Assembly (NCBI GenBank): GCA_025355995.1
Contig: JANXYQ010000104.1
Location: 1 to 32,063 of the forward strand
Reading direction: 5' to 3'
DNA length: 32,063 nt
From: Spirochaetaceae bacterium
GTDB lineage: Bacteria > Spirochaetota > Spirochaetia > Treponematales > Rectinemataceae
A model generated the notes under the pieces. That model did no database searches. It saw only the letters and a program-made list of their open reading frames with translations, and was not told where the DNA came from. Below, piece by piece: positions 13,184 to 27,980 of this stretch (the first letter of the stretch is position 1; the number at the start of each line of letters is the position of its first letter). The position numbers and the translations under genes are program-made.

Positions 13184-16100
13184 GCAAGGTCATGGACGCT
13201 ACGGGATTGAAAAATCTGCTCGGGCGGATCGCGGGCGAGTACCGCGCGAAGGGCTCCATCTACGAGATACCCGAGAAGGCCTTCCGCAAGGCCTTCGAGC
13301 TCGAGGCGGGGAGCCCCGGCCTCGAAGTGATGGGAGGCCTCGTCTCCCTGCCCGTGGGGCCCGCGGCCGGCCCGCACAGCCAGATCGCGCCGAACCTGGT
13401 CGCCGCCTATCTCGCGGGGGCCCGCGTCTTCGAGCTGAAGACAGTCCAGGAGAACGACGCCCTGGAGATCGCCAAGCCCTGCATCGACGCGCTCGACGAG
13501 GGCCACAACACCGAATGGTCGACCGAGCTGTCGCTCGGAGCGGCCCGCGAGGAATACCTCCGGGGATGGATGGCGGTCAACCTCCTCGCCTCGATATTCT
13601 CCTCCTCGCCCCGGGCCTTCATATTCAACATGTCCGTGGGCTACACCCTGGCGGGGATCAAGGGCGCCAAGATGGACGCCTTCATCGAGGGAGTGCGCGC
13701 GCCCGCCGGGACCGAATTCTGGCAGGCCGCGTTGCGCGACCTCGGTTCCTTCGTCGAATCCGTTTCCTTCCGATCGACCTTCGGCGGGGAGGCCCTCGCG
13801 AAGGCGCGCGCCCTGCTGTCGGACTTCCCCTCCTCCCCCGTCCACTCGGTCACTCTGTCCACCATGCACGGCTGCCCGCCCGACGAGATCGGGCGCATCG
13901 GCTCCTACCTCGTCGAGGAGAAGGGCTTCGATACCTTCATCAAGCTCAACCCGACGCTGCTCGGCTTCGATACGGCGCGCCGGATCCTCGACGAGACCGG
14001 CTGGAAGCGCATCGGCATCAGGCGGGACAACTTCGAGCGCGACCTGCAGTTCGCGGATGCGCTCGGCCTCATCGCCGCCCTGGACGCGAAGGCCAGGTCG
14101 CGGGGAAGGCGCTTCGGGATAAAGCTCTCCAATACGCTCGCCAACGCCAACCCCGGGGGCTTCCTCCCTGGCGACGAGCGCTACATGTCCGGGCGCGCCC
14201 TCTTCCCGCTCACGATCAGGCTCGCGGCCGAGCTGGCCGAGGCCATGCGCGCCTCGCTGCCCGGCTGGGACTCCCGCTTCTCCTACTGCGGCGGCGCCTG
14301 GGCGGCGAACGCCGGCGCCCTCGTAGCGGCGGGCCTGGGCCCGCTCACGATCGCGACCGACATCCTCAAGCCCGGCGGCTACCTGCGCCTCCTCCCGGCG
14401 GCCCGCGCCGCCGTGGCGGCCCTGCCTTCCTCGCCGGGCCGTCCCGACGCCGCCGCCCTGGCGCGCCTCGCGGACTCCGCCCTCGCCCTGCCGGAGTACC
14501 GCTCGGGCTGGAAGTCCGGGACCGCCCGGATAGGGAAGCCCTTGCCCGCCTATGATTGCTTCGCCGCCCCCTGCGTCGAGGCCTGCCCCGTGGGACAGAA
14601 GGTCCCGGAGTACATCAGGCTCGAGGCCGAGGGAAGGCGCGAGGCCGCCTTAGCCTCGATCCTCGCCGACAATCCCCTGCCCTTCGTCACCGGCACGTTG
14701 TGCGATCACGTATGCCAGGAAGCCTGCTGCCGCAACGACTACGAGGGCAGCGTGGAGATACGCGCCGTGAAGCTCGCCTGCGCGAGGGCTGCCTCGCTTC
14801 CCGCGACGCGGCCGACCGTCGCCGCTTATAAAGGCAAGGTGGCCATCGTAGGCGCCGGCCCCGCCGGGCTCTCGTGCGCCCACCACCTCGCCCTCGCGGG
14901 CGTGGGCGTCACCATCTTCGACGCCTCTAAGGAGCCGGGCGGAGTGCCCGCCAACGTGATCCCGCGTTTCAGGATCGAGCGGGCGGACCTGGCCGCCGAC
15001 GTGGGCAGGATACGGTCCCTCGGCGTCGAATTCCGCTTCGGCGCCCGGATAGGCTCCCTCGTGGGCCTCGAGGCGGAGGGCTTCACGGCCGTCTTCGTCT
15101 GCACAGGCGCCCCCGACGCGAAGGAGCTCGCGCTGGAGGGCGACGTAGTCCCCGTCGTCGACGCCCTCTCATTCCTCGCGGCCGCCTCCTCCCTCGTCGG
15201 GGGATCGGAAGAGGCCTGGCCCTACGGCAGACCCAAGGATATCGTCGTGGCCGGAGGCGGCAATACCGCCATGGACGCGGCGCGCGTCGCCCTGAGGCTC
15301 CCCGGCGTCGAGCGCGTCCGCATCTCGTACAGAAGGGCGCGGGAGGACATGCCCGCGGACGAGGAGGAGCTGCGCAACGCCCTCGAAGAGGGCGCGAGGC
15401 TCATGGAACTCACCCTGCCCGAGCGCTCCTACGACGCTCCCGAGGGCCCGATGATCTCCCTGCGCGTGATGGAGCCCGGGGAGCCCGACTCCTCCGGAAG
15501 GAGCTCCCCCGTCCCGACGCCCGAGACCGAGAGCGTCGATTGCGACCTCCTCGTTGCGGCGGTGGGCGAAAAGCCCGACGCGGCGCTCCTCGCAAGCCTG
15601 GGCATCCCGGTCGGCCCGAAGGGCCTCCCTGCCTACGACCGCGAGACCCAGGCGGTCTCCCGCCCCAGCCCTCGCGCCGACGCCTACGTCGGGCCCGACG
15701 TCTACGTCGGGGGTGACGCCGCCCACGGCCCCGCCTCGATCATCGAGGCCGAGGCCGACGGGCGCAGGGCCGCCTACGCCATCCTCCGCTCGGCGAGGAT
15801 CGAACCGCCGCGTGAAGCCTACGCTCCGAGCCCTCCCGACGCGGACAAGCTCGCGGCGCGAGGCGAATTCTACCCGAGCGAGGCCGCCAATTCTCCCTCC
15901 TTCGTCTCGAGGGAGGCGGAGCGTTGCCTGCGCTGCGATTCGGCCTGCCTGCGCTGCGTCGAGGTCTGCCCCAATCGCGCCAACTTCGCGCTTCCGATAG
16001 GGTCGGGCTTCGCCCAGTCCATCCAGATCCTCCACGTCGACTCGCTCTGCAACGAGTGCGGCAACTGCGGCCTCTTCTGCCCCTACGAGGGCGAGCCCTA

Positions 16101-16350
16101 TCGCGGCAAGCCCACCCTGTTCAAGGATCGGGCGGCGCTCGAGGCGTCGCGCAACGCCGGATTTTGCTATGTCGCCTCCGGCGGCGGCGCCCCGTCGGAG
16201 CCGGGCCTCCTCTGCCGCGAGGAGCCGGGAGCGGCCCTCGCCGAGCTCGGCTTCGCTAAATGGTCCGCCGAGGGGGCCGGAGGGAGGCTCGCCGCGATCG
16301 CGCGCGAGATATTCGCCAGCCATGAATACCTGATAGGAGGCGAGCGATGA
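13180..16350 (+). CDS. ygfK: YgfK-type flavin/iron-sulfur oxidoreductase (putative urate or selenate reductase subunit)
   Basis: This large protein of 1056 residues has three parts. Residues about 1-430 form a dihydroorotate/dihydropyrimidine-dehydrogenase-like FMN barrel (SLPVGPAAGPHSQIAPN, MHGCPPDEIG, FIKLNPTLLG, IKLSNTLANANPGGF). A Cys-rich linker at about 460-525 (CFAAPCVEACPVGQ, CDHVCQEACC) leads to a glutamate-synthase-small-subunit-like FAD/NAD(P) module with IVGAGPAGLSCA near 555 and VVAGGGNTAMDAA near 690. Two [4Fe-4S]-type motif sets lie at about 915-970 (CLRCDSACLRCVEVCP, CNECGNCGLFCP). The layout mirrors dihydropyrimidine dehydrogenase and matches E. coli YgfK (about 1030 residues). 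It presumably uses NAD(P)H or another low-potential donor to reduce a purine-ring compound, urate being the leading proposal. The old selenate-reductase name rests on weak evidence. It is coupled to hyuA and ssnA by ATGA overlaps. Confidence 0.9.
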   Translation: MSKVMDATGLKNLLGRIAGEYRAKGSIYEIPEKAFRKAFELEAGSPGLEVMGGLVSLPVGPAAGPHSQIAPNLVAAYLAGARVFELKTVQENDALEIAKPCIDALDEGHNTEWSTELSLGAAREEYLRGWMAVNLLASIFSSSPRAFIFNMSVGYTLAGIKGAKMDAFIEGVRAPAGTEFWQAALRDLGSFVESVSFRSTFGGEALAKARALLSDFPSSPVHSVTLSTMHGCPPDEIGRIGSYLVEEKGFDTFIKLNPTLLGFDTARRILDETGWKRIGIRRDNFERDLQFADALGLIAALDAKARSRGRRFGIKLSNTLANANPGGFLPGDERYMSGRALFPLTIRLAAELAEAMRASLPGWDSRFSYCGGAWAANAGALVAAGLGPLTIATDILKPGGYLRLLPAARAAVAALPSSPGRPDAAALARLADSALALPEYRSGWKSGTARIGKPLPAYDCFAAPCVEACPVGQKVPEYIRLEAEGRREAALASILADNPLPFVTGTLCDHVCQEACCRNDYEGSVEIRAVKLACARAASLPATRPTVAAYKGKVAIVGAGPAGLSCAHHLALAGVGVTIFDASKEPGGVPANVIPRFRIERADLAADVGRIRSLGVEFRFGARIGSLVGLEAEGFTAVFVCTGAPDAKELALEGDVVPVVDALSFLAAASSLVGGSEEAWPYGRPKDIVVAGGGNTAMDAARVALRLPGVERVRISYRRAREDMPADEEELRNALEEGARLMELTLPERSYDAPEGPMISLRVMEPGEPDSSGRSSPVPTPETESVDCDLLVAAVGEKPDAALLASLGIPVGPKGLPAYDRETQAVSRPSPRADAYVGPDVYVGGDAAHGPASIIEAEADGRRAAYAILRSARIEPPREAYAPSPPDADKLAARGEFYPSEAANSPSFVSREAERCLRCDSACLRCVEVCPNRANFALPIGSGFAQSIQILHVDSLCNECGNCGLFCPYEGEPYRGKPTLFKDRAALEASRNAGFCYVASGGGAPSEPGLLCREEPGAALAELGFAKWSAEGAGGRLAAIAREIFASHEYLIGGER

Positions 16351-17702
16351 CCATATTCGAAAACGTCCGCGTCATCTCCTTCGAGCCGCCGGCCGTTTCG
16401 GAGCCCATGGACGTGGTTACCGCCGTACCGGGCACGGGCGCCTCGCCCGGTACGATAATCGAGACCGGCTCGGCGCTCGGGGCGAAGTACCCCGGCGCAA
16501 AGCGGGTATCCGGGTCCTACCTGAGCCCCGGCCTGGTCTGCGCGCACACGCACCTGTATTCGGCCCTCGCCCGCGGCCTCATGGTCGACATTGCGCCGTC
16601 CAAGGACTTCGCCCAGCAGCTCCGGCACCTGTGGTGGCGGCTCGACCGCGCCATAGACCTGCCCATCCTGGAGGCGAGCGCGCTCGCCGGCTGCGCGGAC
16701 GCCGCCCTGTCCGGGGTCACCAGCGTCGTGGACCACCACGCCGGCCCCGAAGCCATAGACGGCAGCCTCTCCGTGATACGGCAAGCCTACGAGGAGGTCG
16801 GCATCAGGGGCCTCCTCTGCTATGAGACCACCGACAGGAACGGCATGGAAGGCGCCCGCGCAGGAGTCAGGGAAAACCTCCGCTTCGCACGGGAGATCGA
16901 CGGCGATCGCGCGGCCGGCAAGCGGCCCCTCGTCGACGGCGCGATCGGCGCCCACGCGGGCTTCACCGTCGGGGAGGAGACCCTCGGGGCCCTCGCCGAC
17001 GCGGTAAGGACTTCCAAGCGGGGACTGCACGTCCACCTGGCCGAGGACAAGTTCGACGCCGTGGACTCCCGCTACCGGTTCGGCTCCGACCTGGTCGCGC
17101 GCTTCGACGCGGCGGGCTGCCTCGGCCCCAAAACGATCGTCGGGCATGGCGTATGGCTCAGCCAAGCCGAGGTCGAGACCCTCAACGCCAGGGGCTCCTT
17201 CCTCGCCCACAACGCTCGCAGCAACATGAACAACGCCGTCGGCTACAACGCCCTCCTGCCCCGATTCGACAACGTCGTCCTCGGGACGGACGGGATGAGC
17301 GCGGACATGCTCGAGGAGTTCCGCTTCGCGGCCTTCAGGCACCGCGAGTCGGGCGGCCCCTGGTGGCCTGGCGACTTCCTGCGCTGCCTCGATCGCGGCA
17401 ACCGGGTGATGGAGCGCTACCACGGCGCTCCCGTCGCCTCCGGCTCCGGGGCCTTCGGACGAGTCATCGCGGGCGCCGTCGCCGACCTCGTGCTCTGGGA
17501 CTACGATCCGCCGACGCCCCTCGTGGGCGGGAACATCGCCGGCCACCTCGCTTTCGGCCTGTCGTCCCGCTCGGTCAAATCGGTAATGGTAAACGGAGCC
17601 TTCGTCGTCGAGGACAGGGCGCCGGCCTTCGACGCCGACGGCATCGCCTCGAAGGCGAGGGCCGAGGCTATACGGCTGTGGAAGCGCATGGAGGAAAGAT
17701 AA
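16347..17702 (+). CDS. ssnA: SsnA-type amidohydrolase
   Basis: This 451-residue metal-dependent hydrolase belongs to the TRZ/ATZ (COG0402) family. It is close in length to E. coli SsnA and shares its context next to ygfK. The metal motif CAHTHLYSALARG provides His67 and His69. Later ligands are in GLHVHLAED (second-shell His/Glu), VGHGVWLS (His) and VLGTDGMSADM (Asp). The segment NARSNMNNAVGYN is typical of SsnA-like members. Family enzymes deaminate or open heterocyclic rings, so a ring-opening step on a purine intermediate is inferred; the substrate is not proven by sequence. The start overlaps the ygfK stop (ATGA) and its TAA overlaps the ygeY ATG by one base (TAATG), so all three are probably translated as a coupled unit. 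The residues needed for metal binding appear complete. Confidence 0.9.
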   Translation: MTIFENVRVISFEPPAVSEPMDVVTAVPGTGASPGTIIETGSALGAKYPGAKRVSGSYLSPGLVCAHTHLYSALARGLMVDIAPSKDFAQQLRHLWWRLDRAIDLPILEASALAGCADAALSGVTSVVDHHAGPEAIDGSLSVIRQAYEEVGIRGLLCYETTDRNGMEGARAGVRENLRFAREIDGDRAAGKRPLVDGAIGAHAGFTVGEETLGALADAVRTSKRGLHVHLAEDKFDAVDSRYRFGSDLVARFDAAGCLGPKTIVGHGVWLSQAEVETLNARGSFLAHNARSNMNNAVGYNALLPRFDNVVLGTDGMSADMLEEFRFAAFRHRESGGPWWPGDFLRCLDRGNRVMERYHGAPVASGSGAFGRVIAGAVADLVLWDYDPPTPLVGGNIAGHLAFGLSSRSVKSVMVNGAFVVEDRAPAFDADGIASKARAEAIRLWKRMEER

Positions 17703-18898
17703 TGAGCATTCTAGAGCAGGCGAGGAAGTACAGTGACTACACGGCCAAGAACCTCTCGGAGATGATCCAGGTCCCCGGTTTCAGCTGCACCGAGAAGGAC
17801 AGGATCAAGCTCCTGAAGAAGATGTGCAGGCAGGCGGGCATGGAGGACATCCATACGGACGGCCTAGGCAGCCTCCTTGGCCGCGTCGGGAAGGGGAAGA
17901 AGGTCCTCGTTTTCGACGCGCACATAGACACGGTCGGCGTCGGCGACCCGAGCCAGTGGAAGACCCCGCCCCATTCGGGCATCGTCAGGGACGGCCTCGT
18001 CCTGGGCCGGGGTTCTTCCGACCAGCTGGGCGGAGCGGCGTCCATGATCACAGCCGCCCGCATCCTGAAAGAGGCCGCCTACGCCGGCGACTACACTATC
18101 TGGTTCGCCTTCACCGTCATCGAGGAGGACTGCGACGGCCTGTGCTGGAAGTACCTCATCGAAGAAGAGGGCTTCAAGCTCGACTTCGCCGTGTCCACCG
18201 AGCCGACGAGCTGCCGCCTCTACCGCGGCCACCGCGGGCGCATGGAGATCCAGATAGACATCAAGGGCGTATCCTGCCACGGCTCCGCGCCAGAGCGCGG
18301 CGAGAGCGCCGCCTACAAGGCCGCCCGGGCCGCCCTCGCCCTGGAATCGCTCAACGCGCAGCTGAAAAGCGACGACGACGGCTTCCTCGGCAAGGGCACG
18401 ATCGTCGTATCGCAGATCAAGGTCCAGGGCCCCTCCCAGTGCGCCGTGCCCGACCAGGCCATGCTCTACTGCGACAGGCGCCTCACCTGGGGAGAGGACG
18501 ACAAGCTCGCCATCGGCCAGGTCGAGAAGGCCCTCGAAGCCGCGGGCGTGGACAAGTTCTCCGTGAAAATGCCCGAGTACGCGCAAGCCGCCTACACCGG
18601 CAAGCTCTACAAGCAGGAGCTCTACTTCCCCACCTGGAAGATACCCGCGGACCACCCCCTTGTGCTCTCCGGCATCGACGCCTACTCGGGCCTCTTCGGC
18701 CTTGCCCCTGTAGTCGACAAGTGGACCTTCTCGACCAACTGCGTCGCGATCTGCGGCAGGCACAAGATCCCCTGCATCGGCTTCGGCCCCGGCGACGAGT
18801 CCCAGGCCCACGCGCCCAACGAGATCAACAGGATCGACGATCTCGAGAAGGCCGCCGCCTTCTACGCCGCCCTTCCCTACTCGCTGGAGCGCGGCTAG
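17702..18898 (+). CDS. ygeY: YgeY-type M20-family metallohydrolase
   Basis: This 398-residue M20/ArgE/DapE-like zinc hydrolase compares with about 403 residues for E. coli YgeY. It shows FDAHIDTV (His74, Asp76), GRGSSDQLGG with the bridging Asp107, the VIEEDCDG Glu pair (general base and zinc ligand), STEPTSCRLYRGHRGR, and the C-terminal FGPGDESQAHAPNE with the last His ligand. The lid domain lies between about residues 180 and 290 (ISCHG-like VSCHGSAPERGES). Such enzymes cleave amide or carbamoyl bonds of small amino acid derivatives. Here it likely hydrolyses an N-carbamoyl (ureido) or formyl intermediate of purine breakdown. The ATG at 17702 follows GGAGGAAAG and shares one base with the ssnA stop. 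A 17-base gap separates it from the PLP enzyme downstream. The family call is firm; the substrate is inferred. Confidence 0.92.
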   Translation: MSILEQARKYSDYTAKNLSEMIQVPGFSCTEKDRIKLLKKMCRQAGMEDIHTDGLGSLLGRVGKGKKVLVFDAHIDTVGVGDPSQWKTPPHSGIVRDGLVLGRGSSDQLGGAASMITAARILKEAAYAGDYTIWFAFTVIEEDCDGLCWKYLIEEEGFKLDFAVSTEPTSCRLYRGHRGRMEIQIDIKGVSCHGSAPERGESAAYKAARAALALESLNAQLKSDDDGFLGKGTIVVSQIKVQGPSQCAVPDQAMLYCDRRLTWGEDDKLAIGQVEKALEAAGVDKFSVKMPEYAQAAYTGKLYKQELYFPTWKIPADHPLVLSGIDAYSGLFGLAPVVDKWTFSTNCVAICGRHKIPCIGFGPGDESQAHAPNEINRIDDLEKAAAFYAALPYSLERG

Positions 18899-18915
18899 TC
18901 GCCGCGAGAGCGCGC

Positions 18916-20070
18916 GTGAAGTGGAACTATAGGTGCCCGAGCTGCGGCGCGGAGTACGCGATCGAGCCGGGGCGCTACCTCTGCGAGCCCTGCGCGTCGC
19001 GCAACGCGCCAGGCCTGCCCCTCCACGGGGTCCTCGAGTGCGCCTTCGAGGGCAAGGTGGAGCCGGGCTCGGTGCCCCTGCCGGTGGAGGCGGAATTCTA
19101 CCCGGCATTGCCGGTGGGGAATACGCCGCTCTGGCGGCCGGAACGCCTACGCTCCGAGCTCGGAGCGCCCGGCCTCTGGCTCAAGGACGACACCTGCGAG
19201 CCCTCCGGCTCGTACAAGGACCGCGCCTCCTATCTCGTAGCCGCCTTCGCGCGCAAGCACGGCATCGGGGAGGTCGCCCTCGCCTCGACGGGCAACGCGG
19301 CCTCCAGCATGGCCTGCGTCGGCGCGGCAGCCGGGCTGAAGGTGACCGTCTTCCTGCCTAGGTCCGCTCCGGTCGCGAAGAGGATCCAGGTGCTCCAGTA
19401 CGGGGCCGAGCTGCGGGAGATCGACGGCAACTACGATCTCGCCTTCGACACCTGCCTCGCCTACACGAAGGAGACGGGGGTCCTCTCGCGCAACACGGCC
19501 TACAATCCCCTCACGATAGAGGGCAAGAAGACCGCGGCCTTCGAGATCGTCCGCGACCTACGGACCTCGCGTGGCCTACCGGTCGCGGTGGACCACGTCT
19601 TCGTGCCGACGGGCGACGGCGCGATAATCGCGGGAGTCATCCGTGGCTTCGAGGACCTCCTCCTCATGGGCGAGATCGAGCGAATGCCGAGGATCTGGGC
19701 GGCCCAGGCCGAGGGGTCGAGCGCCCTCGCCCGCGCCCTCGATACCGGCGAATTCGAATTCCGCGCATCGGGCACGTTAGCCGACTCGATAGCGGTGGAC
19801 GCGCCGCGCAACGGGATATTCGCCCTCGCGAAGCTCAAGAAGCACGGCGGCTCGGCAGTCATAGTGACGGACGAGGAGATTCTCGAGGCCCAGGTCCTGG
19901 CCTCCTCGCGCGCGGGGCTCTTCGCCGAGCCTTCGAGCGCCTGCGCCCTCGCGGGTTTCATCAAGGCCCGTCCCTCCCTGGGGAAGGGCGAGACCGCAGT
20001 GGTGATGCTCACCGGATCGGGACTGAAGGATATCAAGAGCGCCGCCAGGGCCGTAGGCGCGAGCTATTAA
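18916..20070 (+). CDS. Threonine-synthase-like PLP enzyme with N-terminal zinc ribbon
   Basis: This 384-residue fold-type II PLP enzyme has a GTG start six bases after GAGAG. Cys7/Cys10 (YRCPSCGAEY) and Cys23/Cys26 (YLCEPC) form a zinc-ribbon-like N-terminus seen in one class of threonine synthases. PLP Lys101 lies in PSGSYKDRAS, and ASTGNAASSMACVG is the substrate/cofactor Asn loop. The chain ends with the phosphate-site-like VMLTGSGLKD. General sequence pattern is threonine synthase, but the operon position is where other clusters of this kind carry YgeX (2,3-diaminopropionate ammonia-lyase), whose motifs are different. A beta-elimination or replacement reaction on a diaminopropionate- or serine-like product of purine breakdown is therefore more likely than threonine synthesis (inference). 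No threonine biosynthesis genes are nearby. True threonine synthase remains the alternative. Confidence 0.8.
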   Translation: MKWNYRCPSCGAEYAIEPGRYLCEPCASRNAPGLPLHGVLECAFEGKVEPGSVPLPVEAEFYPALPVGNTPLWRPERLRSELGAPGLWLKDDTCEPSGSYKDRASYLVAAFARKHGIGEVALASTGNAASSMACVGAAAGLKVTVFLPRSAPVAKRIQVLQYGAELREIDGNYDLAFDTCLAYTKETGVLSRNTAYNPLTIEGKKTAAFEIVRDLRTSRGLPVAVDHVFVPTGDGAIIAGVIRGFEDLLLMGEIERMPRIWAAQAEGSSALARALDTGEFEFRASGTLADSIAVDAPRNGIFALAKLKKHGGSAVIVTDEEILEAQVLASSRAGLFAEPSSACALAGFIKARPSLGKGETAVVMLTGSGLKDIKSAARAVGASY

Positions 20071-20092
20071 GATCGCAGGCAAGGAGCAATCG

Positions 20093-21550
20093 ATGATCGA
20101 CCTTAACGTGAACGAAGCCCAGAGGAAGAAGAACATACAGCGCTGCAAGGAGAAGGGCATCATCCTTCCCACCTACGCCCAGATGCGCGACCCGAGCAAG
20201 GTGCCGGAGTCCGTCAAGAAGGAGTTGTCGGGCATCGGCCTCTGGGACGTCCACGTCCGCAACCTCTTTCGCGTAACCTGGCACAACGAGCCGAAGGAAA
20301 AAGGCGGGAATTTCGGCGGGGTCAACTTCCTCGAACTGCCGAGTTCGATAACCGGAACGAAGGCGCGCATCGTGGGCCTGTCGGGAAAGTGGTTCCCCAC
20401 AGGGGCGCACAAGGTCGGCGCGGCCCTCTCCTGCCTCCTGCCCGAGCTCGTCACGGGCCGCTTCGACCCGACCACCAAGAAGGCCGTGTGGCCCAGCACG
20501 GGCAACTACTGCCGCGGCGGGGCCTACATCTCCCGCCTCCTCTCCTGCCCCAGTATCGCCATCCTCCCGGCGGGCATGTCCCGCGAGCGCTTCGACTGGC
20601 TCAAGACGATGGCCGAGGAGGTCATCGCGACGCCAGGCACCGAGTCTAACGTCAAGGAGATCTTCGACAAGTGCATCGAGCTCGAGCGCACCCGGCCCGA
20701 GGCCGTCATCTTCAACCAGTTCGACCAGCTCCCGAACCACCTTTGGCACTATGCCGTCACCGGTCCCGCGATGGAGGAGGTCTTCAGGAAGATCGCCCGC
20801 CCCGGCGACCACGTGGCGGGCTCTGTGCTCAGCTCCGGCTCCGCGGGGACCCTGGGCGCGGGCTCCTACCTGCGCGACACCTTCCCCGGCGCCAAGGTCG
20901 GCGTGGCCGAGGCCCTGCAGTGCCCCACGATCCTCGAGAACGGCTTCGGCGAGCACCGCATCGAGGGCATCGGCGACAAGCACATCCCTTGGATCCACAA
21001 CCTCCGCGATACCGACGCCGCCATAGGCATCGACGACGAGCTGCCCGTGCGCCTCATCCGCCTCTTCAACGAGGAAGCCGGCAGAAAGGTCCTGGCCGAG
21101 CAGGGCGTCCCCAAGGACCAGCTCGAAAGGCTCGACTGGATGGGCATCTCCGGCGTCGGCAATCTCCTGGGCGCGATCAAGTTCGCCAAGTACTACGAGC
21201 TCGGACCGCAGGACGTCGTCTTCACCATGTTCACCGATTCCATGGACATGTATGGCAGCCGCCTCCGGGAGATGACCGAAGCCCGCGGAAAGTACGACCA
21301 GCGCCAGGCGGACAGGGATTACGACCGGCTCCAGGGCACCTCCGTCGATCACGTCCTCGAGCTAAGCCAGGTCGACAAGCGCCGCATCCACAACCTCAAG
21401 TACTTCAGCTGGATCGAGCAGCTCGGCAAGGACGTCTCCGAGCTCCGGGCCCAGTGGGACGACTACCGGGCCTACTGGGGCGGACTGCGGGCCCAGGTCG
21501 GCGCGCTCGACTCGATGATAGACGACTTCAACCGGGAGGTGCTTCGGTGA
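20093..21550 (+). CDS. TrpB-like PLP-dependent enzyme of unknown reaction
   Basis: This 485-residue protein is of the tryptophan-synthase-beta-like fold-type II PLP superfamily. The Schiff-base lysine is Lys107 in FPTGAHKVGAA, closely resembling the GAHK motif of TrpB. Further support comes from WPSTGNYCRGGAYIS (Asn/Gly substrate loop) and SSGSAGTLGAGSYL (glycine-rich phosphate-binding loop). It has long extra segments compared with TrpB (an N-terminal 45-residue helix-rich part and a C-terminal, possibly coiled tail after about 410) and no indole-channel partner gene. AAGGAG precedes the ATG; its stop overlaps the GTG of the 8-oxoguanine deaminase gene. It probably catalyses an elimination or replacement on an amino acid released in this pathway, perhaps together with the preceding PLP enzyme. 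The substrate is not known. Confidence 0.78.
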   Translation: MIDLNVNEAQRKKNIQRCKEKGIILPTYAQMRDPSKVPESVKKELSGIGLWDVHVRNLFRVTWHNEPKEKGGNFGGVNFLELPSSITGTKARIVGLSGKWFPTGAHKVGAALSCLLPELVTGRFDPTTKKAVWPSTGNYCRGGAYISRLLSCPSIAILPAGMSRERFDWLKTMAEEVIATPGTESNVKEIFDKCIELERTRPEAVIFNQFDQLPNHLWHYAVTGPAMEEVFRKIARPGDHVAGSVLSSGSAGTLGAGSYLRDTFPGAKVGVAEALQCPTILENGFGEHRIEGIGDKHIPWIHNLRDTDAAIGIDDELPVRLIRLFNEEAGRKVLAEQGVPKDQLERLDWMGISGVGNLLGAIKFAKYYELGPQDVVFTMFTDSMDMYGSRLREMTEARGKYDQRQADRDYDRLQGTSVDHVLELSQVDKRRIHNLKYFSWIEQLGKDVSELRAQWDDYRAYWGGLRAQVGALDSMIDDFNREVLR

Positions 21551-22953
21551 TCCTCCTCAAGGGCTGTCTGGCGGCCTACAGGCCGGAAGCGGCCCTGAGC
21601 GGCCGCGTGGATATCCTGATAGACGGAAATCGCATAACGCGCATCGCCGCCTCGGGGGCCGCGGGGTCGGCGGACGGCATCGCCGTCCCCGAGGGGGCCA
21701 AGATCATCGACGCCTCCCGCCACGTGGTCCTGCCCGGCCTCGTCAACGCGCACCACCATTTCTATCAGACCCTGACCCGAGCCCTGCCGGCCGTGCAGGA
21801 CGCCAAGCTCTTCGACTGGCTGGTTTACCTCTACGAGATATGGAAGGGCGTCGACGAGAACGCGGTGCGATGGTCCTCGCGGCTCGCGATGGCCGAGCTC
21901 TTAAAGACGGGCTGCACCCTCACGACGGACCACCACTACCTCTATCCCAAGTCCTTCAAGGACGATCTGCCGGGCATCCAGTTCGAGGCCGCCACCGACC
22001 TCGGCCTCCGCTTCGCGCCGACCCGCGGCTCGATGTCGCGGTCCAAGAAGGACGGCGGACTGCCGCCAGACTCCGTCGTGCAGGACGAGGACAGGATCCT
22101 CGCCGAGTGCGAGGCGACCATTTCGAAGTACCACGACCCGGCCCCCGACGCGATGCGCAAGGTCTCGCTCGCCCCCTGCTCGCCCTTCTCCGTCTCGGAG
22201 AAGTCGATGCGGGAGGCCGCCGAGCTCGCGCGGAGTCGCGGCGTGAGGCTGCATACCCACCTCGCCGAGACCTCCGACGAGGAGGAGTTCTGCGTGGCCA
22301 TGTACGGCCGCAGGCCACTTCGGCTCATGGAGGACTGCGGCTTCGTCGGGAGCGACGTCTGGTACGCGCACGGCATCTACTTCGACGACGCCGAGCTCAG
22401 GCTCCTCGCCCGCACCAAGACCGGGGTTGCGCACTGTCCATCCTCGAACATGCGCCTCGGCTCCGGGATCGCTCGAGTGCGCGAGATGCTCGACCTCGGC
22501 GTCCCGGTGGGGCTCGGCGTGGACGGCTCGGCCTCCAACGACTCCTCCGACATGCTCGGCGAAGCGCGGCAGGCCTTGCTCCTCCAGCGCGTGCGCTACG
22601 GCTCGGCGGGCCTGACCGCCCGCGAGGCCCTGGGGATCGCCACCGAGGGAGGCGCCAGGATGCTCGGCTTCGAGAAGCTGGGGCGGATAGAGGAAGGATG
22701 GATAGCCGACCTCGCCCTCTTCGACGTGATGAGGCTCGAGTACACGGGCGCCCTCTCGGACCCCGTGGCGGCCCTGCTCCTGTGCGGCTACAACCACGGG
22801 GCCGACCACGTGATCGTGAACGGGAAGCTCGCCCTGGAGTCCGGCCGCCTCGTTGGGCCGGGGGCGCGGGCCGGGACGGACGAAGAGGCGATCAGGATGG
22901 GCGCCGATCGCGCCTCGCGCGCGTTGCTGGCGAAGGCGGGATTAAGCGCATGA
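21547..22953 (+). CDS. 8-oxoguanine deaminase
   Basis: This 468-residue amidohydrolase of the TRZ/ATZ family is close to the 8-oxoguanine deaminase/hydroxydechloroatrazine hydrolase branch. The segment VNAHHHFYQTLTRALP (metal His69-71 region) followed by FDWLVYLYEIW is the branch hallmark. Later ligands are in HTHLAETSDEEEF, WYAHGIYF and GVDGSASNDSSDM (Asp). It would release ammonia from 8-oxoguanine and give urate, thereby feeding the same pool as XdhAB. It starts at GTG 21547, within GTGA shared with the previous stop, with GGGAGGT five bases upstream. It ends in an ATGA overlap with the FAD subunit gene. Guanine deaminase is a less likely alternative, because that family has a different HxH context. 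Confidence 0.87.
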   Translation: MILLKGCLAAYRPEAALSGRVDILIDGNRITRIAASGAAGSADGIAVPEGAKIIDASRHVVLPGLVNAHHHFYQTLTRALPAVQDAKLFDWLVYLYEIWKGVDENAVRWSSRLAMAELLKTGCTLTTDHHYLYPKSFKDDLPGIQFEAATDLGLRFAPTRGSMSRSKKDGGLPPDSVVQDEDRILAECEATISKYHDPAPDAMRKVSLAPCSPFSVSEKSMREAAELARSRGVRLHTHLAETSDEEEFCVAMYGRRPLRLMEDCGFVGSDVWYAHGIYFDDAELRLLARTKTGVAHCPSSNMRLGSGIARVREMLDLGVPVGLGVDGSASNDSSDMLGEARQALLLQRVRYGSAGLTAREALGIATEGGARMLGFEKLGRIEEGWIADLALFDVMRLEYTGALSDPVAALLLCGYNHGADHVIVNGKLALESGRLVGPGARAGTDEEAIRMGADRASRALLAKAGLSA

Positions 22954-23855
22954 AAAGCGTCCAGCGTTACGCGAACCCGTCGAGCCTCCAGGAAGCCCTG
23001 GCCGCGAGGAAGGCGGATCCCGGCGCCTCCTATCTCGCGGGCGGCACCTGCCTCCTCGCGGGCGACGGCCGAGACAGGCCCGAGTCGGTCATCGACGTCG
23101 GCCGCTCGCTGCCGCGGGAAATCCTCCGCGAAGGCTCGCTCTTGAGCATCGGCGCGGGAGCGACCTTCCAGGAGCTCGCGGAATCGAGGGAGCTTCCGCC
23201 CTGCGTCACCGATGCGGCCCTATCGATGGTCAACCGGAACACCCGCAACCGGGCGACTCTCGGCGGCAACCTCGGCGCGGACAAGTCCTGCTCGAGCCTC
23301 ATCCCCATCCTCATCGCCCTCGAGGCCGAGGTCGAGGCGGCGTCCCCGTCGGCCTCTCCCGCGAACCCGCCCGGTCTCGAACGCTTCGGGCTCGAGGCCT
23401 GGCTCCGCTCCCGGGCGGAGGCTCCCGATATCTGGCGCGCCGCCGACCTCGTCGTCCGGGTCCTCGTGCCCCTGGTCGAGGGCCGGCGAGCCGCCTATCG
23501 GCGCTGGAACCGCGTCGCCTGCGACCTCTCGGTGCTCGGCGTCGCGGCCTCCTACCGGATCGAGGACGGCGGCGTCAGCGGGCTTCGCCTCGCTCTCGGC
23601 GGCCAAGGCCCCAAGCCGCGCCGCTTCCCGGCGCTGGAGGCCCTCTTCGAGGGGGTCGCCCTGCCTTCGCGCGAGGTCATCGAGGAGGCGGTCTCTCCCC
23701 TCCTCCGCCCGATAGACGACCTCAGGGCGAGCGCGGCCTTTAAGCGCCTGCGCGGCGCTCAGCTCGTCGCCGACGCGCTACTAAGCGCGTCGGCGCAATA
23801 TGGAGCGTCAGCGCTTTCAGGCGCCTCCGACCATCGCGGGGAGCGGATATGGTGA
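22950..23855 (+). CDS. ygfM: YgfM-like FAD-binding subunit of molybdenum hydroxylase
   Basis: This 301-residue protein matches the CO-dehydrogenase-flavoprotein-like FAD subunit of the xanthine dehydrogenase family. The N-terminal FAD contacts include YLAGGTCLL, a variant of the usual GGGT loop, and RNRATLGGNLGADKSCSS, the equivalent of the TIGGN motif. The C-terminal domain starts near residue 180 (RRWNRVACDLSVLGVAASY). E. coli has the same pair in the same order, ygfM then xdhD. It starts with an ATGA overlap with the deaminase gene and overlaps the xdhD-like gene by 7 bases. It should therefore form a complex with that 971-residue FeS/molybdenum protein, taking electrons from the substrate to NAD or another acceptor. 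It lacks FeS motifs, which are supplied by the partner. Confidence 0.87.
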   Translation: MKSVQRYANPSSLQEALAARKADPGASYLAGGTCLLAGDGRDRPESVIDVGRSLPREILREGSLLSIGAGATFQELAESRELPPCVTDAALSMVNRNTRNRATLGGNLGADKSCSSLIPILIALEAEVEAASPSASPANPPGLERFGLEAWLRSRAEAPDIWRAADLVVRVLVPLVEGRRAAYRRWNRVACDLSVLGVAASYRIEDGGVSGLRLALGGQGPKPRRFPALEALFEGVALPSREVIEEAVSPLLRPIDDLRASAAFKRLRGAQLVADALLSASAQYGASALSGASDHRGERIW

Positions 23856-26764
23856 CGACATTCAAGCTGAACGGCAAAACCGTGGCCTGGGAGCTAGACC
23901 CAGGCCTATCGCTGCGCGACGCGCTCAGGGCCAAAGGCGTGATATCCGTACGCAACGGCTGCGACGGCGAGGGCTCCTGCGGGCTCTGCGCCGTGCTGCT
24001 GGACGGCCGATCCGTGAACTCCTGCCAACTCCTCGCCGTCCAGGCCGCGGGCCGCGACGTACGCACGGTGGAGAGCCTCTCGAAGGGCCGCGAGCTCGGG
24101 ATCGTGCAACGCGCCCTCGTAGACGCGGCCTGCGTGCAATGCGGATACTGCACGCCTGCCGTCGCCCTCGCCATCGAGGAGCTCCTCCGCCGTGACAAGA
24201 ATCCCTCGCGCGAGGCCATAGCCGACGCGCTTTCGAGCACCATGTGCAGGTGCACCGGCTACGAGCAGTTCTTCGACGCGGTCCGCATAGCGTCCAAGCG
24301 CCTCGCTGATCCCTCGTACGCCGAGCCGGCCGGCCCCGAATTCCGGCCCGACCTGCGGCACATCGGCAAGGACCGCGATAAGGTTGACGCGGCCCGGCTC
24401 GCCCTCGGGGAGAGGGCCTTCGTCGAGGACCGCGTCGACGCGGACGCCTGCCACCTGAAGATGCTGCACAGCCCGCACGCCCACGCCTGGATCAAGGCTA
24501 TAGACGCGTCGGCGGCCGAGGCGATGCCCGGCGTCGTCGCCGTGCTCACCCACCTCAACTGCCCCGACCAGGTCTACACGACCGCCGGCCAGGGTTTCCC
24601 CGAGCCCTCGCCCTACGACCAGCGCATGTTCTCCAAGAAGGTGAGGCACGTGGGGGACAGGGTCGCCGCGGTCCTCGCCGAGACGCCCGCGGAGGCCCAG
24701 GCCGCCCTCGAGGCCATCGTGGTCGAGTACGAGACGCTCAAGCCCGTCCTCTCCATAGCCGAGGCCAAGGCCCCGGGCGCGCCCATCGTCCACTCGGGAG
24801 CCGTGAGCTACGTCGTCGGAGGCCCGCCCGAAGGGACGAGCGTAGAGGGCGACGGGCGAGACGACCCCGTCGTCTATCAGTTCCCCCTCCACTCCGACCC
24901 CCACCGGAACCTCGCCGCGAGCGCAGCCGACGGGATAGGCGACATCGAGGCCGGTTTCGCGGATGCCGACCTGGTCATCGAGCGGAAATACAAGGGCAAC
25001 CGCGTCCAGTGCACGCCCATGGAACCGCACGTGGTCTACGCCCGCATCGACTCGGGCCGCCTGGTCCTGCGCGCGTCCACCCAGGTTCCCTGGCACGTGA
25101 GGCGGATCGTGGCCCGCGCCATCGGCATACCCGAGAACAAGGTGCGGGTGATCAAGGAGCGCGTGGGCGGCGGCTTCGGGGCGAAGCAGGACATCGTCGT
25201 CGAGGACGTCGCCGGCTACCTCGCCTGGAAGACGGGCAGGCCGGTGTTCTTCCGCTACGACCGCGAGAAGGAATTCATAGCCTCGCGCACGCGCCACGTC
25301 ATGGAGATCGAGGTCAAGCTCGGGGCCAAGCGCGACGGGCGCCTCACCGCCATACAGATGCGCCTGGACGCGGACACCGGCCCCTACGGGCAGCACTGCC
25401 TCACCGTGCCGATGAACGCCATATCGAAGAGCCTTCCCCTCCTCCTCTGCGACAACGTGCGCTTCGAGGTCAAGTCCTATTATACCAATCTCTCGCCGGC
25501 CGGCGCCTACCAGGGCTACGGCGCGCCCAAGGGCTCCTTCGCCTTGCAGACCTGCCTGGCGGAGCTCGCCGCGGAGCTGGGCATCGAGCAGCTCGAGATG
25601 ATAGAGCGGAACAGGGTCCGCTCGGGCACGCGCATCGAGATACTTAGGAGCCTAGGAGAGGGCCGCGCGGGAACGGCGGTCACCCTGGGCGAGTGCGGCC
25701 TAGGCGACATGCTCGCGCGCGGCAAGGCTGCCTTCGCGTGGGACCTCGCGAAGGAGCAAGCTCCTTCGCATGCGGTTTCGGCTTCGCCGAAAGCTTCTGA
25801 AATTCCATATGCCCAAGGAGATTGGAAGATCGGGCGCGGCGCGGTGATCATCCAGCAGGGCTCGGGGCTCCCGGGCCTCGACGCCGCCAACGCCGAGCTG
25901 CGGCTCCTCGCCGACGGGACCCTCCTCATGCTGTCCGGCGGCGCCGACCTCGGCACCGGACTGGACACGGTCACCGCGAAGGCCGCGGCGGAGATCCTCG
26001 GCCTGGACATGGAGGACGTCGAGGTCGTCTCCGGCGACACGGACGTGACTCCCTTCGACAAGGGAGCCTACGCCTCCTCGGGCACCTACTTCTCGGGCAA
26101 CGCAGCCGTGCGCGCGGCGGAGGACTTGCGGGACAAGGTCCTGGCCGCCGCGGCCGCCGTCCTCGGCGAGGACGCCGGCCGCCTCAAGATCGCGCATCGC
26201 GGCAGGGTGGTCGGCGAGCGCGGAGAGGTGAGCCTCGCGAGGCTCGCCCATATGTCCATCCAGGGAGAGGGGCACCACGAGCTCGTGGGCTTCGGCAATT
26301 TCAAGACCGAGCACGCTGCCTTCCCCTACGGGGCGCACTTCGTCCAGGCCGCCGTGAACGAGCGCACCGGCGAGGTCAGGCTGAGCAAGTACTATGCCTA
26401 CCAGGACTGCGGCACACCGATCAACCCCGCCCTCGCCGTCGGCCAGATATACGGCGGCGTGATGAAGGCGGTCGGCCACTCGCTCTACGAAGAGATGATC
26501 TACGACGAGACCGGGCGCTGCGTCAACCCGCGCTTCCTCGATTACAAGATCCCCTCCATCCTCGAGGTGCCCGAGGACTTCCGCGTCGAGCTCATGCCGG
26601 TCGCGGACGAGGTGGGGCCCTTCGGCGGGAAGAGCGTCTCCGAGATCGCGCTGAACGGCGCAGCCCCGGCGATATCGATCGCGATACACGACGCCGTCGG
26701 GGCCTGGGTACGGGAATGGCCATTCACGCCCGAGCGAGTGCTCAGGGCGATGGGAAAACTATAG
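23849..26764 (+). CDS. xdhD: XdhD-like fused FeS/molybdenum hydroxylase
   Basis: This 971-residue fusion compares with about 956 for E. coli XdhD. The [2Fe-2S] domains come first: Cys38, 44, 47, 59 (NGCDGEGSCGLC...SC), Cys98/101 (QCGYCTP) and Cys133/135 (MCRCTGY). The molybdopterin domains follow from about residue 175, with MEPHVVYARI, VGGGFGAKQD near 440-448, YYTNLSPAGAYQGYGAP, GGADLGTGLDT, and the C-terminal GPFGGKSVSEIALNGA with a probable catalytic Glu. Where true xanthine dehydrogenase has Glu802, this protein has Gln447, and the FRGFG motif is YQGYG. It probably therefore acts on a different ring compound from XdhAB, for example another purine or an 8- or 2-position hydroxylation. XdhD of E. 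coli is only tentatively called a hypoxanthine oxidase. An unusual palindromic insertion occurs at residues about 634-656. The FAD subunit is encoded just upstream. Confidence 0.88.
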   Translation: MVTTFKLNGKTVAWELDPGLSLRDALRAKGVISVRNGCDGEGSCGLCAVLLDGRSVNSCQLLAVQAAGRDVRTVESLSKGRELGIVQRALVDAACVQCGYCTPAVALAIEELLRRDKNPSREAIADALSSTMCRCTGYEQFFDAVRIASKRLADPSYAEPAGPEFRPDLRHIGKDRDKVDAARLALGERAFVEDRVDADACHLKMLHSPHAHAWIKAIDASAAEAMPGVVAVLTHLNCPDQVYTTAGQGFPEPSPYDQRMFSKKVRHVGDRVAAVLAETPAEAQAALEAIVVEYETLKPVLSIAEAKAPGAPIVHSGAVSYVVGGPPEGTSVEGDGRDDPVVYQFPLHSDPHRNLAASAADGIGDIEAGFADADLVIERKYKGNRVQCTPMEPHVVYARIDSGRLVLRASTQVPWHVRRIVARAIGIPENKVRVIKERVGGGFGAKQDIVVEDVAGYLAWKTGRPVFFRYDREKEFIASRTRHVMEIEVKLGAKRDGRLTAIQMRLDADTGPYGQHCLTVPMNAISKSLPLLLCDNVRFEVKSYYTNLSPAGAYQGYGAPKGSFALQTCLAELAAELGIEQLEMIERNRVRSGTRIEILRSLGEGRAGTAVTLGECGLGDMLARGKAAFAWDLAKEQAPSHAVSASPKASEIPYAQGDWKIGRGAVIIQQGSGLPGLDAANAELRLLADGTLLMLSGGADLGTGLDTVTAKAAAEILGLDMEDVEVVSGDTDVTPFDKGAYASSGTYFSGNAAVRAAEDLRDKVLAAAAAVLGEDAGRLKIAHRGRVVGERGEVSLARLAHMSIQGEGHHELVGFGNFKTEHAAFPYGAHFVQAAVNERTGEVRLSKYYAYQDCGTPINPALAVGQIYGGVMKAVGHSLYEEMIYDETGRCVNPRFLDYKIPSILEVPEDFRVELMPVADEVGPFGGKSVSEIALNGAAPAISIAIHDAVGAWVREWPFTPERVLRAMGKL
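25748..25792. repeat. Tandem palindromes within the xdhD-like gene
   Basis: Two perfect inverted repeats lie back to back: 10-base arms (25748-25757 and 25760-25769) around AA, and 7-base arms TTTCGGC/GCCGAAA (25776-25782 and 25786-25792) around TTC. They are linked by CGCATGCG. The local composition is less G+C-rich than the flanks and encodes a Ser/Ala/Pro/Lys linker. It resembles an in-frame palindromic insert; no second copy was noticed in the window. Confidence 0.65.
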
Positions 26765-26783
26765 GGGATTCGGGAGGAACGAG

Positions 26784-27980
26784 ATGGGCGCGAACGAGAT
26801 AAAGAACATCATCGACCGGCTGAAGACGAAAAAAATCGACATGGACGGCAAGGACTTCCTCCTCACCTGGGAGAAGTCGCGGGACGAGATTGAGGCGACC
26901 TTCCTGGTCGCGGACGCCCTGCGCGCGATGCGCGACGCCGGCATCTCCCCGCGCGTGTGGGACTCGGGTATCGCGGTCTCCAACTTCCGCGACAACTCGA
27001 CGAGGACCCGCTTCTCCTACGCCTCGGCCTGCGACCTCCTGGGCCTCTACGTCCAGGACCTCGACGAGGGCAAGAGCCAGATCGCCCACGGCGAGACCGT
27101 GCGGGAAACGGCCAACATGATCAGCTTCCTCACCGAGGCGATTGGCATCCGCGACGACATGTACCTGGGCGAGGGCGACAAGTACCAGAGGGAGGTGGGG
27201 AAAGCCCTTGACGAGGGCGTGGCCTCCGGCGTCCTGCCCTCGCGCCCCACGGTGGTGAACCTCCAGTCAGACATCGACCACCCCACCCAGGCGATGGCCG
27301 ACTTCCTGCACCTCTCCCATTACTACGGCGGCCTCGACAAGCTCAAGGGCAAGAAGATCGCGATGAGCTGGGCCTACTCTCCCTCCTACGGCAAGCCCCT
27401 CTCGGTGCCCCAGGGCATCATCGGGCTGGCGAGCCGACTCGGCATGGAGATAGTCCTCGCCCACCCCGAGGGCTACGACCTCATCCCCGAAATCGTCGAG
27501 CTGGCCGAGCGCCAGGCCAAGGCCTCGGGCGGCGCTTTCAAGCGCGTGCACTCGATGGACGCCGCCTTCCAGGGCGCCGACATCGTGTACCCGAAAAGCT
27601 GGGCTCCCTACGACGTGATGCAGAAGCGCGTCCCCCTCCTCCACGAGGGCAACCAGGCCGGTCTCAAGGAGCTCGAGAAGCAGTGCCTCGCGAACAACGC
27701 CAAGTTCAAGGACTGGGAGTGCACCGAGGCGAGGATGAAGCTGACGAAGGAAGGCAAGGCATTGTACATGCACTGCCTCCCCGCCGACATCACCGATGTC
27801 TCCTGCGAGGCGGGCGAGGTCGCCGCCTCGGTTTTCGACCGCTATCGCGACGACACCTACCGCGAGGCGAGCTACAAGCCCTACGTCATCGCGGCGATGA
27901 TCCTCCTGGGCAAGTCGAAGGACCCGGCGGCGACCCTCGCCGGCCTGCTCAAGAGAAGCTCGGCCCGCAGCGCGATCTGA
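26784..27980 (+). CDS. ygeW: Knotted carbamoyltransferase YgeW
   Basis: This 398-residue aspartate/ornithine-carbamoyltransferase-fold protein compares with about 396 for E. coli YgeW. The carbamoyl-phosphate motif is NSTRTRFSYAS (Ser72 to Arg76), followed by HPTQAMADFLHL near residue 167 and HCLPADI near residue 330, the two other conserved carbamoyltransferase sites. The N-terminal ERATFL-like helix IEATFLVADAL is typical of the knotted branch. GGGAGG lies upstream of the ATG, 19 bases after xdhD. Family members of this branch do not act as normal OTCase or ATCase. In purine-degrading clusters, the proposed role is phosphorolysis of a ureido compound, yielding carbamoyl phosphate for ATP formation. 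A carbamate kinase is not in the window. It is the last intact gene of the operon before the decayed stretch. Confidence 0.93.
   Translation: MGANEIKNIIDRLKTKKIDMDGKDFLLTWEKSRDEIEATFLVADALRAMRDAGISPRVWDSGIAVSNFRDNSTRTRFSYASACDLLGLYVQDLDEGKSQIAHGETVRETANMISFLTEAIGIRDDMYLGEGDKYQREVGKALDEGVASGVLPSRPTVVNLQSDIDHPTQAMADFLHLSHYYGGLDKLKGKKIAMSWAYSPSYGKPLSVPQGIIGLASRLGMEIVLAHPEGYDLIPEIVELAERQAKASGGAFKRVHSMDAAFQGADIVYPKSWAPYDVMQKRVPLLHEGNQAGLKELEKQCLANNAKFKDWECTEARMKLTKEGKALYMHCLPADITDVSCEAGEVAASVFDRYRDDTYREASYKPYVIAAMILLGKSKDPAATLAGLLKRSSARSAI

What the first reader, a model, noticed from the sequence alone, without database searches (positions are those of the whole stretch)
18916..21550. Two unusual PLP enzymes stand where YgeX is expected
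The operon lacks any gene with YgeX (2,3-diaminopropionate ammonia-lyase) motifs. In its place are a zinc-ribbon threonine-synthase-like enzyme (Lys101) and a 485-residue TrpB-like enzyme (Lys107) with long extra segments. Neither belongs to an evident amino acid biosynthesis unit. They may form a non-orthologous terminal step, perhaps acting in turn or as a complex on a diaminopropionate-like or ureido amino acid. This is the least explained part of the pathway.
Basis: partly seen in the sequence, partly recalled or inferred. Interest (0 to 1): 0.78.

Follow-up and report, generated by a model that had tools for sequence, protein, structure and literature searches.

The report
Two-enzyme stand-in for YgeX
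In this spirochaete's operon for breaking down uric acid without oxygen, the known last enzyme (YgeX) is missing and two other vitamin-B6 enzymes stand in its place; the same two turn up together in bacteria of many phyla that mostly lack YgeX, so they are probably an unrecognised alternative ending of the pathway, which is still unproven at the bench.

Summary
Two PF00291 enzymes, PLP1 (18916-20070, Lys101) and PLP2 (20093-21550, Lys107), sit directly after ygeY in a reductive uric-acid operon. No YgeX exists in this 95%-complete genome. PLP1 has a threonine-synthase fold but lacks the arginine kept in threonine synthases (0 of 43 relatives), and a separate ThrC-like gene exists. PLP2 is not a TrpB but a cysteine-synthase/CBS-type enzyme with long extra segments. 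An invariant Asp295 aligns with Asp232 of the Fusobacterium cysteine (hydroxyl)lyase, which makes L-serine.

The two co-occur strongly: 11 genomes have both, 2 only PLP1, 2 only PLP2, 154 neither, and PLP1 is in 48 of 50 PLP2-bearing genomes from many phyla. YgeX is in only 3 of those 50. In betaproteobacteria the pair forms an operon with a TRAP transporter, two ureido-hydrolases and L-serine ammonia-lyase; in Accumulibacter ygeW and ygeY lie beside the pair instead.

Best reading: a YgeX-independent ending acting on 2,3-diaminopropionate, PLP1 as likely YgeX stand-in, PLP2 perhaps releasing L-serine. No activity has been shown. The published census counts YgeX by PF00291 alone, so it cannot separate these enzymes from YgeX.

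The parts
18916..20070 (+). PLP1: PF00291 enzyme of threonine-synthase fold, not a threonine synthase by motif; catalytic Lys101 (19216-19218); Thr200 (19513-19515) where threonine synthases have Arg; N-terminal Cys7/Cys10/Cys23 zinc-ribbon-like
20093..21550 (+). PLP2: 485-aa PF00291 enzyme of cysteine-synthase/CBS type; catalytic Lys107 (20411-20413); Asp295 (20975-20977) aligned with Asp232 of Fn1055; C-terminal extension after about residue 400
17702..18898 (+). ygeY: M20 hydrolase that removes a ureido group (TIGR03526, 475 bits, cut-off 321)
16347..17702 (+). ssnA aminohydrolase (47% to E. coli SsnA)
13180..16350 (+). ygfK reductase (TIGR03315, 963 bits, cut-off 835; 41% to E. coli)
11801..13183 (+). 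hydantoinase in the HyuA slot, nearer to allantoinase (28% to E. coli HyuA)
8038..11804 (+). xanthine dehydrogenase, small and large subunits (two genes)
21547..22953 (+). 8-oxoguanine deaminase (NF006055, 593 bits, cut-off 532); start overlaps the PLP2 stop
22956..23855 (+). FAD subunit, YgfM slot (28% to E. coli YgfM)
23849..26764 (+). xdhD molybdenum subunit (52% to E. coli XdhD, the enzyme making yanthine)
26784..27980 (+). ygeW carbamoyltransferase (64% to E. coli YgeW)

Best explanation
The operon encodes the reductive (yanthine) uric-acid pathway, and PLP1 plus PLP2 form its YgeX-independent ending, acting on 2,3-diaminopropionate (DAP) left after YgeW and YgeY remove the two ureido groups. 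PLP1 most likely takes the place of YgeX: it forms an aldimine with DAP through Lys101 and eliminates the beta-amino group, giving aminoacrylate, then pyruvate and ammonia. PLP2 most likely works on the same beta-amino acid (perhaps one stereoisomer) by cysteine-synthase-type chemistry through Lys107, with Asp295 facing the beta position; by analogy with Fn1055 it may add water to the aminoacrylate and release L-serine, which L-serine ammonia-lyase then turns into pyruvate. Shown here: presence, order, co-occurrence, absence of YgeX, family identity, conserved residues. Inferred: the substrate, the split of labour and the products.
For: YgeX is absent from the genome. The genome's other five PF00291 genes look by sequence like CysK, a D-cysteine-desulfhydrase/ACC-deaminase-like enzyme, two TrpBs and ThrC (my reading, not a family scan). 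The neighbours are bona fide pathway genes (pathway from PMC12507026). Spirochaetota, 169 genomes: both 11, PLP1 only 2, PLP2 only 2, neither 154, Fisher p about 1e-13. Among 29 YgeY-positive genomes: YgeX-positive 1 of 22 have PLP1; YgeX-negative 6 of 7 have PLP1. Across many phyla: PLP1 in 48 of 50 and YgeX in 3 of 50 PLP2-bearing genomes. PLP1 alone follows ygeY in G074:C285. The two PLP2-positive spirochaetes without PLP1 (G008, G021) have a YgeX-like enzyme that keeps Lys77, Asp120 and Asp189. Betaproteobacteria carry allantoate-amidohydrolase-like, N-carbamoylputrescine-amidase-like, PLP1, PLP2 and L-serine ammonia-lyase genes with a TRAP transporter (L014, L018, L019; L015 without the transporter in view), while Accumulibacter L017 has ygeY, ygeW and a TRAP transporter near the pair. 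PLP2 Asp295: 55 of 55, also in 41-47% relatives; it aligns with Asp232 of Fn1055, and the D232N mutant 5b55 shows Asn there; Fn1055 makes L-serine.
Against: No activity is known for either enzyme. In G003, G016 and G039 PLP2 sits with xanthine dehydrogenase and 8-oxoguanine deaminase, at a distance from PLP1, which sits with ygfK and ssnA. PLP2 coexists with YgeX in G008, G021, G074 and three of the 50, so it is not simply a replacement. G018 has PLP1 and YgeY but no PLP2 found. Five PLP2-bearing spirochaetes of one family, plus G025 and several genomes of other phyla, show no PF03313 serine dehydratase, so a serine route via that enzyme cannot be general. PLP1 keeps neither acidic residue of YgeX (Asp120 is Thr125, Asp189 is Asn193). 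The genome samples are not phylogenetically independent: 18 of 22 YgeX-positive genomes are one genus.
Confidence: 0.55

Rival explanations
1. PLP1 alone is the YgeX replacement; PLP2 belongs to a different, purine-linked step next to 8-oxoguanine deaminase and xanthine dehydrogenase and only travels with the pathway.
For: PLP1 follows ygeY without PLP2 in G074:C285; PLP2 is kept beside or with YgeX in G021 and G008; PLP2 pairs with 8-oxoguanine deaminase in many loci.
Against: In betaproteobacteria PLP2 is with PLP1 and ureido-hydrolases; L014, L018 and L019 show no purine-ring gene of the query set within their loci. PLP1 is in 48 of 50 PLP2-bearing genomes.
Confidence: 0.25
2. Stereochemical split: PLP1 racemises or handles D-DAP and PLP2 handles L-DAP; together they do what the ambidextrous YgeX does alone.
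For: E. coli YgeX is reported active on both isomers and an R configuration has been proposed for the ureido intermediates. PLP1 also has serine-racemase-fold matches.
Against: No racemase-specific residue was identified in PLP1; the YgeX-like enzyme in G008/G021 keeps both acids, so PLP2 is not needed there for one isomer.
Confidence: 0.15
3. PLP1 is a threonine synthase and the pair is an amino-acid biosynthesis unit.
For: Best solved matches of PLP1 are threonine synthases, 33-35% identity, VIA Z about 40 over 319 residues.
Against: All five solved threonine synthases shown have Arg in the NPxR(I/L)EG motif or its plant equivalent; 43 of 43 PLP1 relatives lack that Arg (30 Thr, 8 Leu, 4 Met, 1 Gln) and have EGKKT instead of EGQKT. 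All hits are under the ThrC cut-offs. A separate ThrC-like gene is at G000:C25.
Confidence: 0.05

Closest known systems
YgeX, 2,3-diaminopropionate ammonia-lyase (E. coli b2871, TIGR03528)
   Same: PF00291 fold type II; sits next to ygeY; the end of the same pathway
   Different: PLP1 matches at 22 bits against a cut-off of 532; Asp120 and Asp189 of YgeX are Thr125 and Asn193 in PLP1; PLP2 gives no listed match to the model
Threonine synthase (ThrC; 2zsj, 2d1f, 6cgq, 1uim, 1e5x)
   Same: PLP1 fold, 33-35% identity to bacterial enzymes, SxKDR lysine motif
   Different: the conserved Arg is absent, EGKKT replaces EGQKT, GDG replaces the GN motif, ADS replaces the AT motif; below the family cut-offs
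Cysteine (hydroxyl)lyase Fn1055 of Fusobacterium nucleatum (5b53, 5b55)
   Same: among the nearest solved enzymes to PLP2; Asp232 = Asp295, Gln147 = Gln209, TSGN loop = STGN loop; VIA Z 31.9 over 313-314 residues
   Different: 22% identity; Fn1055 has about 336 residues and acts on cysteine; PLP2 has 485 residues with a long N-terminal segment and a C-terminal extension
Cystathionine beta-synthase / O-acetylserine sulfhydrylase (CysK)
   Same: PLP2 core fold and amino-acid carboxylate-binding motifs; NCBIfam best CysK 72 bits
   Different: far below the cut-off (351 bits); about 20-25% identity; Ala at the Asp295 position in CysK, Tyr in CBS
OrtB, 2-amino-4-oxopentanoate thiolase (NF040741)
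   Same: similar length to PLP2, PLP enzyme of amino-acid fermentation
   Different: PLP2 gives no match to NF040741 at E 0.001; a true OrtB exists separately in G192, a genome that also has PLP2

Membership tests
Reductive uric-acid degradation cluster (Li et al. 2025) | XdhD, YgfK, SsnA, HyuA, YgeW, YgeY homologues together | tested here: met
   the HyuA slot is an allantoinase-like hydantoinase
Reductive uric-acid degradation cluster (Li et al. 2025) | YgeX at the end | tested here: not met
   no YgeX in cluster or genome; two other PF00291 genes instead
YgeX / DAP ammonia-lyase (TIGR03528) | score over 532 bits | tested here: not met
   PLP1 22 bits, PLP2 no match listed
YgeX / DAP ammonia-lyase (TIGR03528) | Asp120 and Asp189 (roles recalled from the literature) | tested here: not met
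   PLP1 has Thr125 and Asn193
YgeX / DAP ammonia-lyase (TIGR03528) | turns DAP into pyruvate and ammonia | not testable with these tools
   needs an enzyme assay
Threonine synthase (TIGR00260) | score over the family cut-off | tested here: not met
   PLP1 138 bits, cut-off 167; also under the cut-offs of the PRK threonine synthase models
Threonine synthase (TIGR00260) | Arg of the NPxR(I/L)EGQKT motif (phosphate site, recalled) | tested here: not met
   0 of 43 PLP1; present in 5 of 5 solved enzymes shown and in 9 of 9 threonine-synthase controls
Tryptophan synthase beta (TrpB) | match to TrpB models | tested here: not met
   no TrpB model among the PLP2 matches at E 0.001; the genome has two TrpB-like genes elsewhere
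Cysteine (hydroxyl)lyase Fn1055-type | Asp at the Asp232 position | tested here: met
   Asp295 in 55 of 55
Cysteine (hydroxyl)lyase Fn1055-type | release of L-serine by beta-replacement with water | not testable with these tools
   needs an enzyme assay
OrtB (NF040741) | score over 550 bits | tested here: not met
   PLP2 not matched at E 0.001; model exists

The most novel reading that the evidence does not exclude
PLP2 is a 2,3-diaminopropionate (hydroxyl)lyase: it swaps the beta-amino group of DAP for water, so that in these bacteria uric acid is degraded to L-serine, an amino acid usable for one-carbon metabolism and biosynthesis, rather than directly to pyruvate.
Probability: 0.27. Interest if true: 0.68.

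Novelty: new variant of a known kind. Interest (0 to 1): 0.56.

Why it matters
The reductive uric-acid pathway was worked out biochemically only in 2025 and is tied to human urate balance. Its published distribution counts the last enzyme by Pfam PF00291 alone, which PLP1 and PLP2 also pass, so a different ending in spirochaetes, Chloroflexota, Halanaerobiales, Atribacterota, Bipolaricaulota, Acidobacteriota and betaproteobacteria could not have been told apart. If right, two widespread uncharacterised enzyme families get a substrate to test, and the betaproteobacterial operon predicts uptake and use of diureidopropionate or a similar ureido amino acid.

Tried and rejected
PLP2 as OrtB: no match to NF040741. 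PLP2 as TrpB: only the lysine motif is similar. PLP1 as threonine synthase: motif absent and a ThrC-like gene elsewhere. PLP1 as a hidden YgeX: acids not conserved. Obligate complex: genes lie apart in several genomes. Loss of one YgeX stereo-acid in genomes that keep PLP2 but lack PLP1: not seen, both acids are kept. A tree of PLP1 relatives did not resolve PLP1 and threonine synthases as two clean clades (long branches for OrtB, YgeX and L122), so the motifs, not the tree, carry the distinction. L-serine ammonia-lyase as a general partner of PLP2: absent from several PLP2 genomes. A wider census in the order of G179 found only 4 of 399 genomes with PLP2. YgeX structures are not among the listed matches of PLP1, which excludes nothing. 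No paper found in the searches made describes either family.

Full report
What is there. The window carries a run of genes on the + strand from about 8038 to 27980: xanthine dehydrogenase small and large subunits, a hydantoinase, ygfK, ssnA, ygeY, PLP1, PLP2, an 8-oxoguanine deaminase, an FAD subunit, xdhD and ygeW. Identity to the E. coli uric-acid cluster is 64% for YgeW, 52% for XdhD, 49% for YgeY, 47% for SsnA and 41% for YgfK, so this is the reductive pathway of Li et al. (PMC12507026): uric acid to yanthine, ring opening to 2,3-diureidopropionate, removal of both ureido groups to 2,3-diaminopropionate (DAP), and DAP to pyruvate and ammonia by YgeX. PLP1 starts 17 bp after ygeY, PLP2 22 bp after PLP1, and the next start overlaps the PLP2 stop.

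YgeX is missing. The YgeX model TIGR03528 finds only PLP1, at 22 bits against a cut-off of 532, in the whole 95%-complete genome. The genome has seven PF00291 proteins; besides the two here they read as CysK, a D-cysteine-desulfhydrase-like enzyme, two TrpBs and an E. coli-type threonine synthase (assignments by eye).

PLP1. Predicted with pLDDT 92, its nearest solved structures are threonine synthases (bacterial ones: VIA Z about 40, 318-319 residues, rmsd 2.0-2.2, 33-35% identity). But all five solved threonine synthases shown carry Arg in the NPxR..EGQKT motif or its plant equivalent, as do nine threonine-synthase controls (eight sequences from this phylum and Aquifex), whereas 43 of 43 PLP1 relatives have Thr, Leu, Met or Gln there, and EGKKT, GDG and ADS motifs instead. 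It also lacks the two acids of YgeX (Thr125 and Asn193 at the places of Asp120 and Asp189). PLP1 is therefore neither a threonine synthase nor a YgeX by these tests.

PLP2. Predicted with pLDDT 90. It is not TrpB-like overall: sequence and structure place it near cysteine synthase and cystathionine beta-synthase. The second-best solved match of its profile is Fn1055 of Fusobacterium nucleatum, a cysteine (hydroxyl)lyase that makes L-serine by putting water in place of the thiol. Fn1055's Asp232 aligns with PLP2 Asp295; the numbering is confirmed by the D232N structure 5b55, which shows Asn in that column. Asp295 is kept in 55 of 55 relatives and in relatives of 41-47% identity, where CysK has Ala. 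An acid at the beta position would suit a substrate with a beta-amino leaving group; that step is inference.

Distribution. In 169 Spirochaetota genomes, PLP1 (253 bits and more, clearly apart from threonine synthases at 164 bits and less) and PLP2 occur together in 11, PLP1 alone in 2, PLP2 alone in 2, neither in 154 (Fisher p about 1e-13, not corrected for relatedness). Of 29 genomes with YgeY over the cut-off, 22 have YgeX, of which 1 has PLP1 and 3 have PLP2; 7 lack YgeX, of which 6 have PLP1 and 5 have PLP2. Eighteen of the 22 are one genus, so the number of independent events is small; at genus level all five genera without YgeX have both enzymes, and of four genera with YgeX two have neither. 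Outside this sample, 50 genomes chosen because they carry PLP2, from many phyla, hold PLP1 in 48 and YgeX in 3. No YgeX is found within the 80 PLP2 loci. Of these 80 loci, 53 hold at least one further gene of the purine or ureido kind, 44 hold PLP1, and in 23 the two genes lie within 300 bp, in either order; no background rate was measured.

Gene order separates the roles in part. In G074:C285 PLP1 alone follows ygeY, and PLP2 is on another contig. In G003, G016 and G039 PLP1 is with ygfK and ssnA while PLP2 is with xanthine dehydrogenase and 8-oxoguanine deaminase, several kilobases away. G008 and G021 have PLP2 and a YgeX-like enzyme with all three key residues, and no PLP1. These cases favour PLP1 as the YgeX stand-in and warn that PLP2 may do something else.

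A natural swap points to the substrate. In betaproteobacteria L014, L018 and L019 the order is TRAP transporter, allantoate-amidohydrolase-like, N-carbamoylputrescine-amidase-like, PLP1, PLP2, L-serine ammonia-lyase; L015 has the same from the hydrolases on, and L111 shows PLP1, PLP2 and the serine enzyme. In Accumulibacter L017 a ygeY, a ygeW and a TRAP transporter lie near the pair. Two unrelated sets of enzymes that remove ureido groups thus feed the same pair, as expected if the pair acts on their common product DAP. The substrates of the betaproteobacterial hydrolases are read from family names only. The serine enzyme at the end fits L-serine as a product, but five PLP2-bearing spirochaetes of one family, G025 and several genomes of other phyla have no PF03313 serine dehydratase; this genome has one, in two pieces on different contigs. 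The serine step is therefore a hypothesis with about 0.27 probability.

Verdict. The published network counts YgeX by PF00291 within 15 genes of ssnA, a criterion that PLP1 and PLP2 also meet.

Noticed in passing
L014 3700-12690, L018 3640-12690, L019 3716-12690, L015 6250-12360: Betaproteobacterial operon of TRAP transporter, two ureido-hydrolase-like genes, PLP1, PLP2 and L-serine ammonia-lyase, suggesting uptake and use of an external ureido amino acid.
   Followed up: partly
window 11801-13183: The HyuA slot holds an allantoinase-like hydantoinase (TIGR03178 344 bits, cut-off 358), only 28% identical to E. coli HyuA.
   Followed up: no
window 8038-11804 and 22956-26764: Two separate xanthine-dehydrogenase sets flank the pathway genes; only the second is the XdhD type.
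   Followed up: no
L109 11959-13458, L110 12070-13404, L113, L114: A second PLP2 subfamily (41-47% identity) in Rhizobium and Bosea plasmids near TauE-type exporters and, in Bosea, a RidA protein, and in two genomes next to a gene that reads like a CoA-transferase subunit.
   Followed up: no
L078 2475-3044 and 19 further loci: A conserved family of about 190 residues without an NCBIfam match lies near PLP2 in 20 loci, nearly all Chloroflexota.
   Followed up: no
window 8038-27980: No carbamate kinase gene was recognised in the window although YgeW is present; elsewhere carbamate kinase is common near PLP2 (18 of 80 loci).
   Followed up: no
G000:C80:1-591 and G000:C135:14521-14853: The genome's L-serine dehydratase (PF03313) appears as two pieces on two contigs, one at a contig end, so it is probably one gene broken by the assembly.
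   Followed up: no
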